A DNA stretch of 37,125 nucleotides, taken from the IMG/VR virus record IMGVR_UViG_3300048839_001882, positions 1-37,125 of that record. One strand, given 5' to 3'. The notes below the pieces were generated by a model. It was not told the DNA's origin. It did no database searches and was given only the letters and a program-made list of their open reading frames with translations. Position numbers and translations under genes: made by a program. Positions 1,231 through 36,566 of this stretch are shown piece by piece (position 1 is the first letter of the stretch; each line of letters begins with the position of its first letter). The stretch is from a virus.

Positions 1231-1764
1231 TTAGCGGCGCTTGAGCCCTTTCTTGGAGCGTTTCTTGCGTAGCTTAGCCTCCTCCGCAGCTCGCTTACGA
1301 TTAATTTCGTCAGCGAAGTTGAATCTGACGGTGGAGGGTAGCCGGAAGGTGAAGACGGTTTGGCCATCAACACAACTTGCCGCGAAGTCGCCCATGCCGA
1401 TGATGTCCATACCGATAAGGACTTCGATGTCGCCGGCAAGGAGGCCATCACAGACGGCCACTTCCGGGAAGCCAACGTTATTGGGTAAGCCAACGCGCAC
1501 AAGGTATCTGTTACTACGATGACGGCCGGCGGCCGTCTCAACTTCGATTATCCCTATGGGTGAAAGGCGGCAGTCGGCGACGACCTTCTCTGTGATAACT
1601 GTATTTGTGGCGCCTGTATCCCAGAGTGCTTTGTAGGTATATTCCGGATCAAGTGGTCGTGGGTATTTGTTGGTGTCAAATGCCTGTCCGATTGTGACTG
1701 TGCTCTCCAAGACAAAGCTTCGCCCATTGTAGGTAACCGTAAAGGCTTGGGAAGCGTCTTTCAT
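1231..1764 (-). CDS. Retropepsin-like aspartyl protease
   Basis: A 177-residue protein with the retropepsin catalytic signature ALWDTGATNTVI (Asp at about residue 49). The second characteristic segment is VLIGMDIIGMGDF (residues ~115-127), equivalent to the ILGxD region of retroviral-type proteases. The family acts as a homodimer, each chain giving one catalytic Asp, and one DTG motif fits that. The last ~25 residues are very basic (RKKRSKKGLKRR), perhaps a nucleic-acid or membrane contact. The start overlaps the stop of the upstream DUF5678 gene by four bases (ATGA at 1761-1764), so the two are translationally coupled. No reverse transcriptase or integrase is nearby, so this is not a retroelement remnant. 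The substrate is unknown; cleavage of the partner is one possibility. Confidence 0.8.
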   Translation of the reverse strand: MKDASQAFTVTYNGRSFVLESTVTIGQAFDTNKYPRPLDPEYTYKALWDTGATNTVITEKVVADCRLSPIGIIEVETAAGRHRSNRYLVRVGLPNNVGFPEVAVCDGLLAGDIEVLIGMDIIGMGDFAASCVDGQTVFTFRLPSTVRFNFADEINRKRAAEEAKLRKKRSKKGLKRR

Positions 1765-3041: not shown

Positions 3042-3809
3042 CTAGACGGGCCGTTGGCTGGTAATGGCTCTGGATAAGCAGGCCGGGCAGGTGCAGTTGG
3101 TTCGCTTCTTCTGGAGATGGACCAGACCGTGGATGACGGCGTTATTGGTGTCAAAGCGATCTTCGATGCATTGGAAGTAGGTGAGGTCGTCAGCATTGTA
3201 GCGGCGGAAGACGGCATAGGCAATGTGGTCGGCGAGTTGCACGACGCGCGAGGCTTTGCTGTCGACGAATAGTGGCACTTCGCAGATTTCGCGCAGTTCG
3301 TTTCCCCAGCGGTTGCCATCTTTGCGGTATTTTGTTGCCAGGGACTGGAGGCTTGTTTCGTAGGTGCTCTTGTCGAGTACGATAAGGCCTCGTTGGTTGG
3401 CGCTCTTTTCGGCGGTTTTTCGGCGGAGGTAGATGGCGAAGCGGTTACTTATTTCTTCGAAGGCCATTTCTACGGGGTCCTGATCTTTGAAGCTTTGTTT
3501 GTGAACGGCGCAGGCAAAAATGACGATGTCGGCATAGGCGCCATCCAAAGCGCGGAGAACAGTCTTGATGATTTCGATGCGTTGGTTGCGGTCCAGTTGC
3601 TTGGCCCACTCTTGGCGGCCGCCGAAGGTCTCGGAGGCGTGGAGCTCGATGGCGGCGGGATTGGCGGCGGGGAGGGCGAGGGCGACTTGTTCGAGCTGGT
3701 GGGACAGCCAGCGGGTACTTTGCTCGGGGACGCAGACGCCGCCGAGGACAAAGTATTCTTCGCTGACGGTGGAGGCGGAACCGGAGTCGTCGAGGTAGAG
3801 AAGGTACAT
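3042..3809 (-). CDS. DUF3800 protein (RNase H-like fold family)
   Basis: A 255-residue protein that starts MYLLYLDDSGS, the typical DUF3800 opening with an acidic pair. It continues with YFVLGGVCV, FACAVHKQSF, GLIVLDKSTYET and the late family signature SRVVQLADHIAYAVFRRY (residues ~196-213). DUF3800 is thought to have an RNase H-like fold with Asp/Glu residues suited to metal-dependent nuclease chemistry; the activity here is unproven. The C-terminus adds a possible zinc site (CTCPACLS). The start is fixed by the family motif, yet no Shine-Dalgarno lies before it: TATCATTACGCT precedes the ATG. Immediately upstream is a terminator hairpin preceded by a tandem-repeat structured RNA with its own promoter. 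Published RNA surveys describe structured RNA motifs upstream of DUF3800 genes. Confidence 0.85.
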   Translation of the reverse strand: MYLLYLDDSGSASTVSEEYFVLGGVCVPEQSTRWLSHQLEQVALALPAANPAAIELHASETFGGRQEWAKQLDRNQRIEIIKTVLRALDGAYADIVIFACAVHKQSFKDQDPVEMAFEEISNRFAIYLRRKTAEKSANQRGLIVLDKSTYETSLQSLATKYRKDGNRWGNELREICEVPLFVDSKASRVVQLADHIAYAVFRRYNADDLTYFQCIEDRFDTNNAVIHGLVHLQKKRTNCTCPACLSRAITSQRPV

Positions 3810-3820
3810 AGCGTAATGAT

Positions 3821-3859
3821 ATCAAAAGCCCTTGAGTCATCCACTCAAGGGCTCTTGAT
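3821..3859 (-). terminator. Intrinsic terminator between the repeat RNA and DUF3800 gene
   Basis: The 10-bp perfect stem GCCCTTGAGT (3828-3837)/ACTCAAGGGC (3843-3852) has a 5-nt loop and extends to ~17 bp with one mismatch. On the minus strand it ends in CTTTTGATATC, a U-rich tail. It stands 11-12 nt before the DUF3800 start codon, so DUF3800 expression would need readthrough. Confidence 0.75.
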
Positions 3860-3869
3860 TATCGCGATA

Positions 3870-3986
3870 GCTAGCTTAGCCGAATCGGGTGTTCCCGAGC
3901 GAACCGCTGATGCAGCTCTTTCGACCGCTAATTAGCCGAGTGAAACTTTGTTCAGCGAATCGCCTATCTGCGACTCTCTCGACCTG
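3870..3986 (-). ncRNA. Candidate structured tandem-repeat RNA upstream of DUF3800
   Basis: Two tandem units are read on the minus strand: 3984-3927 (58 nt) and 3926-3870 (57 nt). Both begin GGTCGARAGAG, share GCGRTTCGCT and GAACA in the middle, and end TCGGCTAA..TAGC; identity is about two thirds with small gaps. Local stems are visible: TGTTCAG/CTGAACA (3984-3990 with 3949-3955), AGTCGC/GCGATT inside it, and TCGGG-AACA-CCCGA (3885-3898). The transcription start predicted from the promoter falls within a few bases of the first unit, and a terminator follows the second. No open frame of note exists here. It may be one of the DUF3800-associated RNA classes or an antitoxin-like RNA. Confidence 0.55.
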
Positions 3987-3991
3987 AACAC

Positions 3992-4020
3992 AGTATAGTA
4001 GTTTTTGTGGGGCAACTCAA
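3992..4020 (-). promoter_or_regulatory. Sigma70-type promoter of the repeat RNA/DUF3800 operon
   Basis: On the minus strand TTGAGT (4015-4020) and TATACT (3992-3997) are spaced by exactly 17 bp. The predicted start near 3985 coincides with the first base of the tandem repeat. Confidence 0.65.
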
Positions 4021-4357: not shown

Positions 4358-4386
4358 AGTATAAGGTGGATGCATACACTCGTCAA
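4358..4386 (-). promoter_or_regulatory. Leftward promoter of the control region
   Basis: On the minus strand TTGACG (4381-4386) and TATACT (4358-4363) are spaced by 17 bp. The spacer contains the palindrome-like site GTGGATGCATACAC (4366-4379). Confidence 0.75.
4366..4379. promoter_or_regulatory. Operator-like palindrome, site 3
   Basis: GTGGATGCATACAC is an imperfect palindrome centred on ATGCAT. It lies in the spacer of the leftward promoter. Its centre is 42 bp from that of site 1, four helical turns. Confidence 0.65.
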
Positions 4387-4401
4387 TCCCCAAATTGGTC
4401 A

Positions 4402-4430
4402 TTGACATTGTATGCATACAAGACTATAAT
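4402..4430 (+). promoter_or_regulatory. Rightward early promoter with perfect consensus hexamers
   Basis: TTGACA (4402-4407), a 17-bp spacer and TATAAT (4425-4430) match the sigma70 consensus exactly. It reads toward the gene at 4515 and the early operon. A palindrome fills the spacer and a second covers the start region, so it should be strong but tightly repressed. Confidence 0.9.
4408..4421. promoter_or_regulatory. Operator-like palindrome, site 1
   Basis: TTGTATGCATACAA is a perfect 14-bp palindrome between the -35 and -10 of the rightward promoter. Confidence 0.8.
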
Positions 4431-4441
4431 GTATGCATACA
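4430..4441. promoter_or_regulatory. Operator-like palindrome, site 2
   Basis: TGTATGCATACA is a perfect 12-bp palindrome overlapping the end of the -10 box and the expected start. Its centre is exactly 21 bp (two helical turns) from site 1. Confidence 0.8.
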
Positions 4442-7468: not shown

Positions 7469-7641
7469 TTGAGCCGGGACGGTATACGCTGGAGGAAGCG
7501 GCTGCGCTGGGCGTGTATGATGCGCTGAGCGGCCGTGTTTTGCCCCAGGAAGGGCTGATCATCTTCAAGGCGTGTAGTGGGGGATGTGGCTGCCGGAGCG
7601 AGGGGCAGGAGTGTTGGGTGTTCATACGGGTGCGGAGCTGA
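7465..7641 (+). CDS. 58-residue Cys-rich protein of unknown function
   Basis: The peptide contains YTLEEAAALGVYDALSGRV, LIIFKACSGGCGC and GQECWVFI: four Cys in a CxxxCxCx7C pattern that may bind zinc. The first part resembles a short helix-hairpin sequence. It overlaps both neighbours by 4 and 1 nt, strong evidence that it is translated. No family is recognised. Confidence 0.6.
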   Translation: MIEPGRYTLEEAAALGVYDALSGRVLPQEGLIIFKACSGGCGCRSEGQECWVFIRVRS

Positions 7642-8501
7642 TGGGCATTCCTGCGATGAGTGACACTGCGCCCACGCGGCCGGCGTTGCGGTATTACGGT
7701 GGGAAGTGGAATCTAGCGAGCTGGGTTTCGTCGTTCTTCCCACCGCACCGGGCGTATCTGGAACCGTGTATGGGCGCGGCGTCGGTGTTTTTGCAGAAGC
7801 GACCGGTGGAGGTGGAGGTGTTGAATGATGCCAACGGCCGGGTAGTGAACTTCTTCCGCCAGTTGCGCGACAATGGCGCAGAACTGATCCGGCGCATCGA
7901 GCTGACGCCCTGGGCTGAGGATGAGTATGGGTTGTGCAAAACAGCGACTGAGGATCCGGTGGAGGATGCGCGGCGGCTCTATGTGGCGTCGTGGCAGTCG
8001 GTGCATGGGGTAGGATCGGATCGGTCGGGCTGGCGCTGGGTGGCCGACCCGGACGGCCGACGGGGATTGTCGCCGTCGGCGGACTGGATCGCCCATGACC
8101 TGCATACGGTTGCCCAGCGCCTGCGGCGGGCACACATTTCTAATCGTGATGCGTTGAAGGCGATCCGGCGGATGGTGAGCCTTGATTCGTGTCTCATTTA
8201 CTTTGATCCGCCTTATACGCTGGAGAGTCGGACTCGTACGGATGGCTATGGCGCGTATGAAGTTTCGGAAGTATGGCACGAGGAGGCGGCCGAGTTGTTG
8301 CGCCGACATGCAGGTTATGTGGTGGTCAGCGGGTATGCTTCGCCGCTGTATGAGCGGTTGTATGAGCAGCATGGGTGGCGCCGGGTTGATCGGGCCTTCA
8401 GCGGCAACAGCGGTTCGTTGCGAACTGAATCGCTATGGCTGTCGCCTCGAGCGGATCGTGACTCGTTGCCGCTGTTTCGAGCGATGGGGAGGTCGTTGTG
8501 A
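7641..8501 (+). CDS. DNA adenine methylase, D12 class
   Basis: A 286-residue N6-adenine methyltransferase of the Dam/D12 class. Visible motifs in order are LRYYGGKWNLASWV (cofactor-side start, residues ~16-29), YLEPCMGAASVFLQK (SAM-binding motif I, ~39-53), VEVLNDANGRVVNFF (~57-72) and the catalytic IYFDPPYTLESRT (DPPY at 189-192). Full length fits the family (260-290). Phage enzymes of this type methylate phage DNA against host restriction or mark regulatory sites. The start overlaps the upstream stop by one base; Met6 (7656) is an alternative start. The stop overlaps the next start (GTGA). The target sequence cannot be read from the gene. Confidence 0.92.
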   Translation: MGIPAMSDTAPTRPALRYYGGKWNLASWVSSFFPPHRAYLEPCMGAASVFLQKRPVEVEVLNDANGRVVNFFRQLRDNGAELIRRIELTPWAEDEYGLCKTATEDPVEDARRLYVASWQSVHGVGSDRSGWRWVADPDGRRGLSPSADWIAHDLHTVAQRLRRAHISNRDALKAIRRMVSLDSCLIYFDPPYTLESRTRTDGYGAYEVSEVWHEEAAELLRRHAGYVVVSGYASPLYERLYEQHGWRRVDRAFSGNSGSLRTESLWLSPRADRDSLPLFRAMGRSL

Positions 8502-8877: not shown

Positions 8878-10206
8878 ATGGACCAGAAACATAACATTAT
8901 TCCTGACCTTCTGTCGCTGGCGACACCGGTGGGTGAACTGCATCTTGATCCGGCTAATGCGCGGATGGGTCATCATTTGGAGCGAATTGCGGCCAGTCTG
9001 GCGCAATATGGCCAGCGCAAGCCAATTGTAGTCAATCGATCGGAAGGGAATAAGGTGGAGGCCGGGAACGGGATGCTGCAGGCGGCGCAGCAACTGGGCT
9101 GGTCTCATATCGCGGCCGTGTTTGTGGAGGAAGACGCCACGACGGCAGCCGCGTTTGGGATCGCTGACAATCGGCTCGCGGAATTATCGCAGTGGGATTT
9201 TGAGACGCTGCAGACGCTGATTGGCAGTATTGATCCTGACTTGGAGCTAGAAACAGGGTTTGGGGACGGTGAGCTGGAAGCGTTGTTGGAGGCGGCCAGG
9301 ATAGAGAGCGCTGATAGTGATCTCGAGGAGCCGGGCGACGCGGAGCCGCGATTCGATAGGGCTGAGGCTTTGGCCGAGGAGTGGGGTGTAGCGCCGGGTC
9401 AGATTTGGCGGCTGCCGAGCCGGGTCGAGGGCCAGGAGCATCGTCTTGCCTGTGGCGATTGCACGGACGCGGCCGTGGTTGAGCGGCTTATGGCCGGGAA
9501 GCGGGCGACGTTATTCGCGACTGATCCACCCTATCTGGTCGATTATGATGGCACGAATCACCCCCAGAGCTGGAAGGCATCGCCCAAAAAGCGACGGGTT
9601 GTGAACAAGGATTGGTCGGCTACCTACAAGGATTGGGATGCGGCCGGACAGGGGGAGGAGCTATACGACAGGTTTGTCGCCGTGGCTGTTGAGCACGCGA
9701 TTATCGAGGACGCGGCCTGGTACTGTTGGCACGCGAGCAGGCGGCAGGCGATGCTTGAGGAGGTGTGGGCGCGGCATGGGGCGTTTGTCCATCAGCAGAT
9801 TATCTGGTTTAAGGATCGGCCGGTGCTGACGCGCTCGTGGTATATGTGGCAGCATGAGCCGTGTTTCTTCGGATGGGTGAAGGGCAAGAAGCCACGGCGG
9901 GCAGTGGATGAGTGGATCGGCAGCGTCTGGGTTCACCCGACGCAAACGGCGTTTGAGAAAACGGATCATCCGACCTCCAAGCCGGTGCCGTTGTTTGAGA
10001 TCCCGATTCATCAGCATACTCTGGCTGGTGAGCTGTGTTACGAGCCGTTTTCGGGAAGTGGAACGCAGATCGTGGCGGCCGAGAATTTGGGGCGGCAATG
10101 TCGGGCGGTGGAAATTGCGCCCCCGTTTGTGGCTGTGGCACTGGATCGGTACTTTCGAGCGTTCGATATTCGCGGGGAGCTGATGGACGGAGAAGTCGAT
10201 GGGTGA
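8878..10206 (+). CDS. ParB-like domain fused to a beta-class DNA methyltransferase
   Basis: A 442-residue protein common in phages. Residues ~15-130 are a ParB/Srx-type domain: LDPANARMGHHLERIAASL, KPIVVNRSEGNKVEAGNGML, then FGIADNRLAELSQWD. The MTase half has the catalytic DPPY (216-219, FATDPPYLVDYDG) before the SAM-binding motif EPFSGSGTQIVAAENLGR (~389-406), with HPTSKPV between them. This order is typical of group beta N4-cytosine/N6-adenine enzymes. The likely role is protection of phage DNA. No Shine-Dalgarno is obvious before the ATG; the leader has G-rich repeats and a small GTGC/GCAC hairpin, so translation may be regulated. Confidence 0.92.
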   Translation: MDQKHNIIPDLLSLATPVGELHLDPANARMGHHLERIAASLAQYGQRKPIVVNRSEGNKVEAGNGMLQAAQQLGWSHIAAVFVEEDATTAAAFGIADNRLAELSQWDFETLQTLIGSIDPDLELETGFGDGELEALLEAARIESADSDLEEPGDAEPRFDRAEALAEEWGVAPGQIWRLPSRVEGQEHRLACGDCTDAAVVERLMAGKRATLFATDPPYLVDYDGTNHPQSWKASPKKRRVVNKDWSATYKDWDAAGQGEELYDRFVAVAVEHAIIEDAAWYCWHASRRQAMLEEVWARHGAFVHQQIIWFKDRPVLTRSWYMWQHEPCFFGWVKGKKPRRAVDEWIGSVWVHPTQTAFEKTDHPTSKPVPLFEIPIHQHTLAGELCYEPFSGSGTQIVAAENLGRQCRAVEIAPPFVAVALDRYFRAFDIRGELMDGEVDG

Positions 10207-36044: not shown

Positions 36045-36566
36045 GTGACGCAGGGGGTAAAGCTGTCTCGGGCTGAGATCGAGGCGATTCTGGCGCTGTT
36101 GGCCGAGGGGTATACGTATGCGGAGGTGGCTGAGGCGACGGGGTTTGGGGCGGGGACGGTGTGCCGGACGGTGAAGCGGCATGGGCATCCACCCCCGCCC
36201 TGCTGGACGGAGGAGACGGTGGCGGCGCCGCTGGAGCGGTTGTACCGGTCGGCGGTTAGCTATGAGGAGATGGCGCGGCGGCTGGGGATCAGTCTAGCGC
36301 AGGTGAAGAGGTGGCTGCGGCGGCGAGGGCTGACGGGTCGGCCGCGGCGGGTGACGGATGAGGATGTGGCCGAGATGGTTCGGCTGCGAAATGAGGGGCT
36401 GTTTTACCGGGAGATCGCGGCCCGGTTGGGTTGGCATCATGACACGGTGTATTGGCGGGTGCGGGAAGCGGCGGGCGTGGACCACGGCCGGGCGGCGGAA
36501 CGTAAACGGGAAGTAAACCGAAGGTGGGCATATCGAGATGTCGGACAGTATAGAACGCACGTTTGA
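36045..36566 (+). CDS. Triple helix-turn-helix DNA-binding protein in the tail module
   Basis: A 173-residue basic protein with three successive HTH units. They are ILALLAEGYTYAEVAEATGF with AGTVCRTVKRHG (~15-46), YEEMARRLGISLAQVKRWLR (~73-93) and YREIAARLGWHHDTVYWRVR (~121-141). The units resemble homeodomain/resolvase-type HTHs. It starts with GTG and has GGAG 8 nt upstream. The C-terminus overlaps the next gene by 29 nt. It is likely a late-gene regulator or a DNA-ejection or packaging accessory; no recombinase catalytic domain is attached. Confidence 0.75.
   Translation: MTQGVKLSRAEIEAILALLAEGYTYAEVAEATGFGAGTVCRTVKRHGHPPPPCWTEETVAAPLERLYRSAVSYEEMARRLGISLAQVKRWLRRRGLTGRPRRVTDEDVAEMVRLRNEGLFYREIAARLGWHHDTVYWRVREAAGVDHGRAAERKREVNRRWAYRDVGQYRTHV

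What the first reader, a model, noticed from the sequence alone, without database searches (positions are those of the whole stretch)
3042..4020. Repeat RNA - terminator - DUF3800 locus with type III toxin-antitoxin-like layout
Seen: on the minus strand, a TTGAGT-17-TATACT promoter whose predicted start falls at the first of two tandem 57-58 nt repeats (3984-3870), then an intrinsic terminator (3821-3859), then a DUF3800 gene lacking a Shine-Dalgarno. Known: type III toxin-antitoxin loci have promoter, tandem-repeat RNA antitoxin, terminator and toxin in this order; published RNA surveys list structured RNAs upstream of DUF3800 genes. Inference: the RNA may restrain or be processed by the DUF3800 protein, giving an RNA-controlled nuclease system of a different protein family.
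Basis: partly seen in the sequence, partly recalled or inferred. Interest (0 to 1): 0.85.

Follow-up and report, generated by a model that had tools for sequence, protein, structure and literature searches.

The report
RNA-paired RNase-H2-like gene in a phage
A phage carries two small folded RNAs, followed by a transcription stop signal, directly in front of a gene for an RNase-H2-like enzyme; comparison with over 100 relatives suggests that the RNAs are separate molecules that hold the enzyme in check, like the RNA antidotes of toxin-antitoxin systems, although nobody has tested this.

Summary
On the minus strand lie a sigma70-like promoter, two tandem copies of the Rfam RNA DUF3800-VI (RF02915; 3985-3933, 3927-3877), an intrinsic terminator (3859-3821) and a DUF3800 gene (3809-3042). 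The copies are only 62% identical; they are repeats of structure. The RNA is a three-way junction: 17 of 20 base pairs show changes on both sides across 50 sequences. It was found at 79 of 80 related DUF3800 genes. Across loci it begins about 7 nt after the -10 box and ends at a terminator: its own closing stem plus a U-tract (53/89) or a separate hairpin as here (25/89). No antiterminator pairing was found, and in Zavarzinella formosa the RNA is divergent, so it looks like a free small RNA rather than a leader switch. The protein model has an RNase H2-like fold with an invariant D-E-D-D set. About 13 loci keep the RNA beside a broken DUF3800 gene; no intact gene was seen to lack it, but the RNA's small target size weakens this asymmetry. 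Best reading: a type III-like toxin-antitoxin module with an unrelated toxin fold and a usually single-copy, often self-terminating antitoxin. Toxicity and binding are untested; Rfam files the RNA as cis-regulatory.

The parts
3992..4020 (-). sigma70-like promoter, -35 TTGAGT (4020-4015), spacer 17, -10 TATACT (3997-3992)
   Evidence: position against the RNA start agrees with the family (-10 hexamer ends about 7 nt before the RNA in 30 of 87 loci, background about 2)
3933..3985 (-). RNA copy 1, three-way junction, Rfam RF02915 DUF3800-VI
   Evidence: 46.3 bits with Rfam, 53.1 bits with model R1; fold z -2.98; here P3 is weak in the single-sequence fold
3877..3927 (-). RNA copy 2, three-way junction, Rfam RF02915; carries A8-U53 in place of G8-C53, as the second copies of the Chloroflexota tandem loci do
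   Evidence: 47.1 bits with Rfam, 53.9 bits with R1; fold z -2.91; copy comparison
3821..3859 (-). intrinsic terminator between RNA and gene
   Evidence: inverted repeat of 17 nt, 94% complementary; dG -30.6, z -7.7
3042..3809 (-). DUF3800 gene, 255 aa, RNase H2-like fold, invariant D7, E55, D146, D194
   Evidence: PF12686; AlphaFold2 pLDDT 95.8; RNase H2 Z 10.2; conservation 77/77

Best explanation
The locus is an RNA-protein toxin-antitoxin-like module. RNA polymerase starts at the first base of the three-way-junction RNA and mostly stops at the terminator, so a short stable RNA is made in large excess. A small share of transcripts reads through and gives a little DUF3800 protein (no Shine-Dalgarno here). 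The protein is an RNase H2-like nuclease; the folded RNA binds it and keeps it inactive. If RNA supply falls (loss of the element, or host shut-off by another phage), free DUF3800 cleaves nucleic acid and harms the cell. Shown here: separate start and stop of the RNA (by sequence), conserved fold, conserved acidic residues, tight linkage of the pair, one divergent copy, RNA retained beside broken protein genes. Inferred: transcript abundance, RNA-protein binding, inhibition, toxicity, trigger.
For: Three-way junction with 17/20 pairs changed on both sides, 96.5% of cells paired against at most 48% in slid controls. One RNA or one tandem pair per genome at the DUF3800 locus in 40 of 41 genomes searched whole; the one extra copy is also next to a DUF3800 fragment. 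RNA at 79 of 80 protein-first genome loci. Promoter and terminator fixed around the RNA: -10 peak at 7 nt; 78 of 89 loci terminate right after the RNA, against 7% and 2.5% in shuffled flanks. No antiterminator in 16 loci. Divergent RNA with its own promoter and terminator in Zavarzinella. RNase H2 is the best fold, D7/E55/D146/D194 in 77/77. RNA intact beside broken DUF3800: L022, L050, L061, L080, L094, L141, L142, L150, L157, L164, E. coli plasmids with a frameshift (L172) and an ISSen4 insertion (L173), and a split gene in Agrobacterium (L169-L171). Found on ColE1-type small plasmids, rhizobial plasmids and phages. RNA and protein distances correlate (Mantel r 0.54, 0/2000 permutations). 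Precedent: the AbiF RNA, also a two-motif Rfam RNA upstream of its gene, neutralises AbiF in cis and in trans (PMC12373285).
Against: No toxicity, expression or binding data were found for this clade. Loss asymmetry is weak as a test: the protein gene is about 13 times longer than the RNA, so most inactivations would hit it anyway. Only one divergent case was seen, on a short contig. A DUF3800 gene of Legionella was called essential in Tn-seq (PMC7811196), though its subfamily is unknown to me. Some more distant DUF3800 genes have no such RNA (L371, L372), so the fold as such need not be harmful. Eleven of 89 loci did not pass the terminator rule, two of them (L017, L025) through limits of the rule or of my coordinates.
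Confidence: 0.55

Rival explanations
1. RNA-protein effector (defence RNP): the RNA is a needed cofactor or activator of the RNase H2-like nuclease, and the pair acts against invaders rather than being a toxin held by its antidote.
For: DUF3800 proteins occur as accessory RNase H-fold proteins in some Cas12a2-type and VI-F CRISPR loci (PMC10910872, PMC12669027); tight linkage and correlated evolution fit a cofactor as well as an inhibitor; scattered distribution of about 0.3-4% of genomes per group.
Against: The RNA is almost wholly paired with short loops and no free variable stretch that could serve as a guide; loci with intact protein and no RNA were not seen, while the reverse is common, although target size may explain this.
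Confidence: 0.22
2. Cis-acting regulation: the RNA is a leader or attenuator that controls DUF3800 expression, for instance by binding the DUF3800 protein (autoregulation). This is how Rfam files it.
For: RF02915 is typed Cis-reg; the RNA sits directly upstream on the same strand in nearly all loci and in 53/89 its own stem is the terminator.
Against: No antiterminator pairing beyond chance in 16 loci with separate terminators; divergent RNA in Zavarzinella; two long-diverged tandem copies kept in one clade; RNAs persisting without the gene. Autoregulation and antitoxin action can also coexist.
Confidence: 0.17
3. Reverse module: the RNA is harmful and DUF3800 degrades or tames it.
For: A Legionella DUF3800 gene was listed as essential in Tn-seq (PMC7811196).
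Against: About 13 independent loci keep the RNA beside a disrupted DUF3800 gene; a harmful RNA would have to go first.
Confidence: 0.03

Closest known systems
Rfam RF02915 DUF3800-VI RNA
   Same: Both copies in the window match over the gathering score, and a DUF3800 gene follows.
   Different: Two tandem copies with distinct, anciently diverged sequences and a separate terminator; Rfam types the family as cis-regulatory, the evidence here points to a separate small RNA.
Type III toxin-antitoxin systems (ToxIN, AbiQ, CptIN, TenpIN)
   Same: Order promoter, tandem RNA, intrinsic terminator, protein gene; nuclease-like protein; mobile elements.
   Different: Protein is RNase H2-like DUF3800, not the ToxN family; the RNA is a three-way junction; most relatives have a single copy that often carries its own terminator, so processing into units is not required.
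AbiF / RCd22 RNA system (Rfam RF03085), PMC12373285
   Same: Two copies of a structured Rfam motif plus terminator upstream of a phage-borne gene; RNA is antitoxin in cis and trans.
   Different: AbiF protein is Abi_2 (linked to Cas13 ancestors in the paper), the RNA motif is another family; no match to either in this window.
RNase HII / H2
   Same: Fold of residues 1-208 (Z 10.2, 158 residues, rmsd 2.9) and an invariant acidic set.
   Different: 11% identity; a housekeeping repair enzyme without an RNA partner gene.

Membership tests
Rfam RF02915 DUF3800-VI | Match over the family's gathering score (35 bits) | tested here: met
   46.3 and 47.1 bits
Rfam RF02915 DUF3800-VI | Upstream of a DUF3800 gene | tested here: met
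   PF12686 E 8.5e-16, same strand, starts 68 nt after copy 2
Rfam RF02915 DUF3800-VI | Acts in cis on the downstream gene (Rfam type) | not testable with these tools
   indirect evidence against a switch:
Pfam PF12686 DUF3800 | Score over curated cut-off (21 bits) | tested here: met
   59.4 bits over residues 3-203
Type III toxin-antitoxin | Promoter, tandem-repeat RNA, terminator, protein gene in this order | tested here: met
   for the window; most relatives have one RNA copy
Type III toxin-antitoxin | Toxin of the ToxN/AbiQ/CptN/TenpN family | tested here: not met
   Pfam at E <= 0.001 gives DUF3800 only; fold search led by RNase H2
Type III toxin-antitoxin | RNA antitoxin binds and neutralises a toxic endoribonuclease | not testable with these tools
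   needs expression and binding assays
Type III toxin-antitoxin | Repeats cut into units by the toxin (ToxN) | not testable with these tools
   single-copy relatives show that it is not needed in general
AbiF system | Abi_2 protein and RF03085 RNA | tested here: not met
   neither reported in the window or for the gene
RNase H2-like nuclease fold | Fold and acidic active-site set | tested here: met
   Z 10.2, D7/E55/D146/D194 77/77; catalysis itself untested

The most novel reading that the evidence does not exclude
A separate class of type III-like toxin-antitoxin module, spread over about fifteen bacterial phyla, plasmids and phages, in which the toxin is an RNase H2-like nuclease and the antitoxin is a 53-nt three-way-junction RNA that begins at its promoter's first base and often ends with its own stem as terminator; in Chloroflexota and their phages it has become a two-part tandem antitoxin.
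Probability: 0.45. Interest if true: 0.85.

Novelty: new variant of a known kind. Interest (0 to 1): 0.62.

Why it matters
The DUF3800 RNAs are catalogued structured RNAs without an assigned function in the sources I could read. The comparison turns them into a sharp, cheap test: is the RNA a free antidote of an RNase H2-like protein? If so, RNA-inhibited toxins would include a nuclease fold that, to my knowledge, is not known for them, with an antitoxin that needs neither repeats nor processing, and a large set of orphan RNA-protein loci on phages and small plasmids would gain a function.

Tried and rejected
Plain repeat search did not call the two copies: they are 62% identical, so the structure model was needed. 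phmmer and profile search against PDB sequences gave nothing. PADLOC gave only weak, partial matches, not used. An attenuator with antiterminator pairing was tested and not found. RNA-pattern scans of viral contigs gave mostly chance matches; only known DUF3800 phage loci passed the RNA model. Weinberg et al. 2017, the source of the motif as I recall it, is not held, so I could not check what its authors proposed. I considered counting RNA-without-protein loci as proof of antitoxin function and rejected it: the RNA is a small mutational target and some orphan RNAs (L148, L149) look decayed. Weak RNA-first hits (L156, L161) may be chance or relics and are not counted.

Full report
What is there. 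The window is a 37,125-base virus record with siphophage genes: terminase, major head protein, tape measure and tail genes. On the minus strand, left of a divergent control region, lie a sigma70-like promoter (4020-3992), two matches to Rfam RF02915 DUF3800-VI (3985-3933 and 3927-3877, 46.3 and 47.1 bits), an intrinsic terminator (3859-3821) and a DUF3800 gene (3809-3042, PF12686) with no Shine-Dalgarno before its ATG.

The repeats are repeats of structure. The two copies are 62% identical and a plain repeat finder does not call them. Each folds as a three-way junction better than shuffles (z -3.0 and -2.9), although P3 of copy 1 is weak in the single-sequence fold. An alignment of 50 copies from many phyla (A2) supports the junction: 20 pairs in P1, P2 and P3, 96.5% of cells paired against at most 48% when the 3' partners are slid, 17 pairs with changes on both sides, 0 of 500 shuffles as good. 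The structure was taken from the Rfam model and the rows were chosen by a geometric search, so some bias towards it exists, but the effect is large.

The pair is almost inseparable. A protein-first scan of one genome per species gave 80 kept loci; 79 have the RNA next to the gene, by geometry or by the covariance model R1. The exception, L063, holds only 117 nt upstream of the gene start. R1 run on 41 whole genomes found one RNA or one tandem pair per genome, at that locus; the single extra copy, in G005, again lies beside a DUF3800 fragment. Thirteen of 14 viral loci and all ten plasmid or phage loci have it too; the most distant viral one (L108) has a similar-looking junction by eye only. 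RNA and protein distances correlate (Mantel r 0.54, 0 of 2000 permutations).

The RNA is bounded as a transcript of its own. A TAnnnT hexamer ends 7 nt before the first RNA base in 30 of 87 loci, against about two at most other offsets, so transcription should start at the first base of P1. The 3' end is a terminator in one of two ways: in 53 of 89 loci a U-tract follows P1 directly, so that the RNA's own closing stem is the terminator, sometimes abutting the ATG; in 25 of 89 a separate hairpin follows, as in the window. Shuffled flanks give 7% and 2.5%. In 16 loci of the second kind the terminator's 5' arm pairs with the RNA no better than with shuffled RNA, so a switch of the riboswitch kind is not supported. 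In Zavarzinella formosa (L037) the RNA lies on the other strand, divergent from an intact DUF3800 gene, with its own -10 box and terminator; there it cannot be the leader of that gene. This is one case on a short contig.

Tandem copies. Most relatives have one copy. The tandem form is found in the Chloroflexota clade that holds the window (a starred clade of nine: six Chloroflexota and three viral rows), and also in L023 and L033. In the Chloroflexota loci second copies resemble each other (mean identity 0.72) more than their own first copy (0.57) and share an A8-U53 pair where first copies mostly have G8-C53. So the duplication is old and the copies are different parts, not a fresh repeat; the near-identical pair of phage L095 is an exception (0.92). 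Processing into equal units, as in ToxIN, is therefore not suggested.

The protein. AlphaFold2 on the alignment of 77 relatives gives pLDDT 95.8. The best solved matches are RNase HII, H2 and H3 (Foldseek; Z 10.2 over 158 residues at 2.9 A), ahead of RNase HI at about 6.5. D7, E55, D146 and D194 are identical in 77 of 77 rows, as expected of an RNase H acidic set; which of them correspond to the RNase HII catalytic residues one by one was not checked on coordinates. An RNase H fold for DUF3800 was already reported from AlphaFold2 (PMC10910872), and the family is noted beside CRISPR systems (PMC12669027).

Which partner is dispensable. RNA kept, gene damaged: single early stops in L050, L061, L080 and L094, frameshifts in L022 and L142, 5' deletions that leave the RNA in L141 and L150, truncations in L157 and L164, a frameshift in E. 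coli plasmid L172, an ISSen4 insertion in E. coli plasmid L173 (the 3,604-bp plasmid type plus the insertion), and a split gene in Agrobacterium L169-L171. RNAs without a nearby gene: L140, L162, a cyanobacterial lineage (L144, L145, L147, L149), L146. Intact gene without RNA in this clade: none seen. This is what an antitoxin RNA and a toxin gene would give, and it argues against a harmful RNA tamed by the protein. It is not strong evidence for toxicity, since the gene is about 13 times longer than the RNA and only about one RNA loss would be expected among 13 neutral losses. Some stops could be sequencing errors.

Mechanism. I take the best reading to be an RNA-inhibited nuclease: excess RNA made by early termination, rare read-through for a little protein, RNA bound to the protein as inhibitor, release when RNA supply stops. 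A terminator setting the ratio of RNA to protein is how type III loci are described (PMC12373285). Binding, inhibition, toxicity and trigger are inference. The rivals are an RNA-dependent effector, and a cis-acting leader with autoregulation, as Rfam's type implies. A published Tn-seq study lists a DUF3800 gene of Legionella among essential accessory genes (PMC7811196), which does not fit a plain toxin; I could not place that gene in a subfamily. More distant DUF3800 genes without such an RNA also exist.

Known or new. The RNA family, its link to DUF3800 and the RNase H fold are known. I found no paper in the held library that tests the pair; 11 papers mention DUF3800. The nearest proven case is AbiF, where a phage-borne two-motif Rfam RNA is an antitoxin in cis and in trans (PMC12373285). 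What is added here is the case that DUF3800-VI RNAs are separate, self-bounded transcripts, that the tandem form is an old paralogous pair, and that the protein is closest to RNase H2 with an invariant acidic set. By the ToxN criterion it is not a member of the known type III families; it may well work like one.

Noticed in passing
window 4367-4441: Three copies of the palindrome TGTATGCATACA (4367, 4409, 4430; 0.03 expected) around a perfect TTGACA-17-TATAAT promoter (4402-4430, +) and a divergent TTGACG-17-TATACT (4386-4358, -): looks like the phage's repressor-operator switch.
   Followed up: partly
window 8878-10206 (+): Fusion of a ParB-like N-terminal part and an N4/N6 DNA methyltransferase; a second D12-class adenine methyltransferase lies at 7584-8501.
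   Followed up: no
window 36045-36566 (+): A 173-aa protein matching many helix-turn-helix families with up to three stretches, near the right end of the record.
   Followed up: no
window 1231-1764 (-): A retroviral-type aspartyl protease-like protein (PF13975/PF13650) in a phage record.
   Followed up: no
L144, L145, L147, L149 (RNA at 1501-1554): In a cyanobacterial lineage the DUF3800-VI-type RNA is followed not by DUF3800 but by the same other small gene; the RNA decays stepwise from 52 to 34 bits.
   Followed up: partly
L005 1570-1670, L006, L007, L008 upstream of DUF3800: ColE1-type plasmids of enterobacteria carry a variant of the RNA that RF02915 misses but model R1 finds, so the Rfam model is narrower than the family.
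   Followed up: yes
L108 3001-3741: A DUF3800 gene at 27% identity has, by eye, a similar three-way junction followed by a T-run just upstream, which neither Rfam nor R1 reports.
   Followed up: partly
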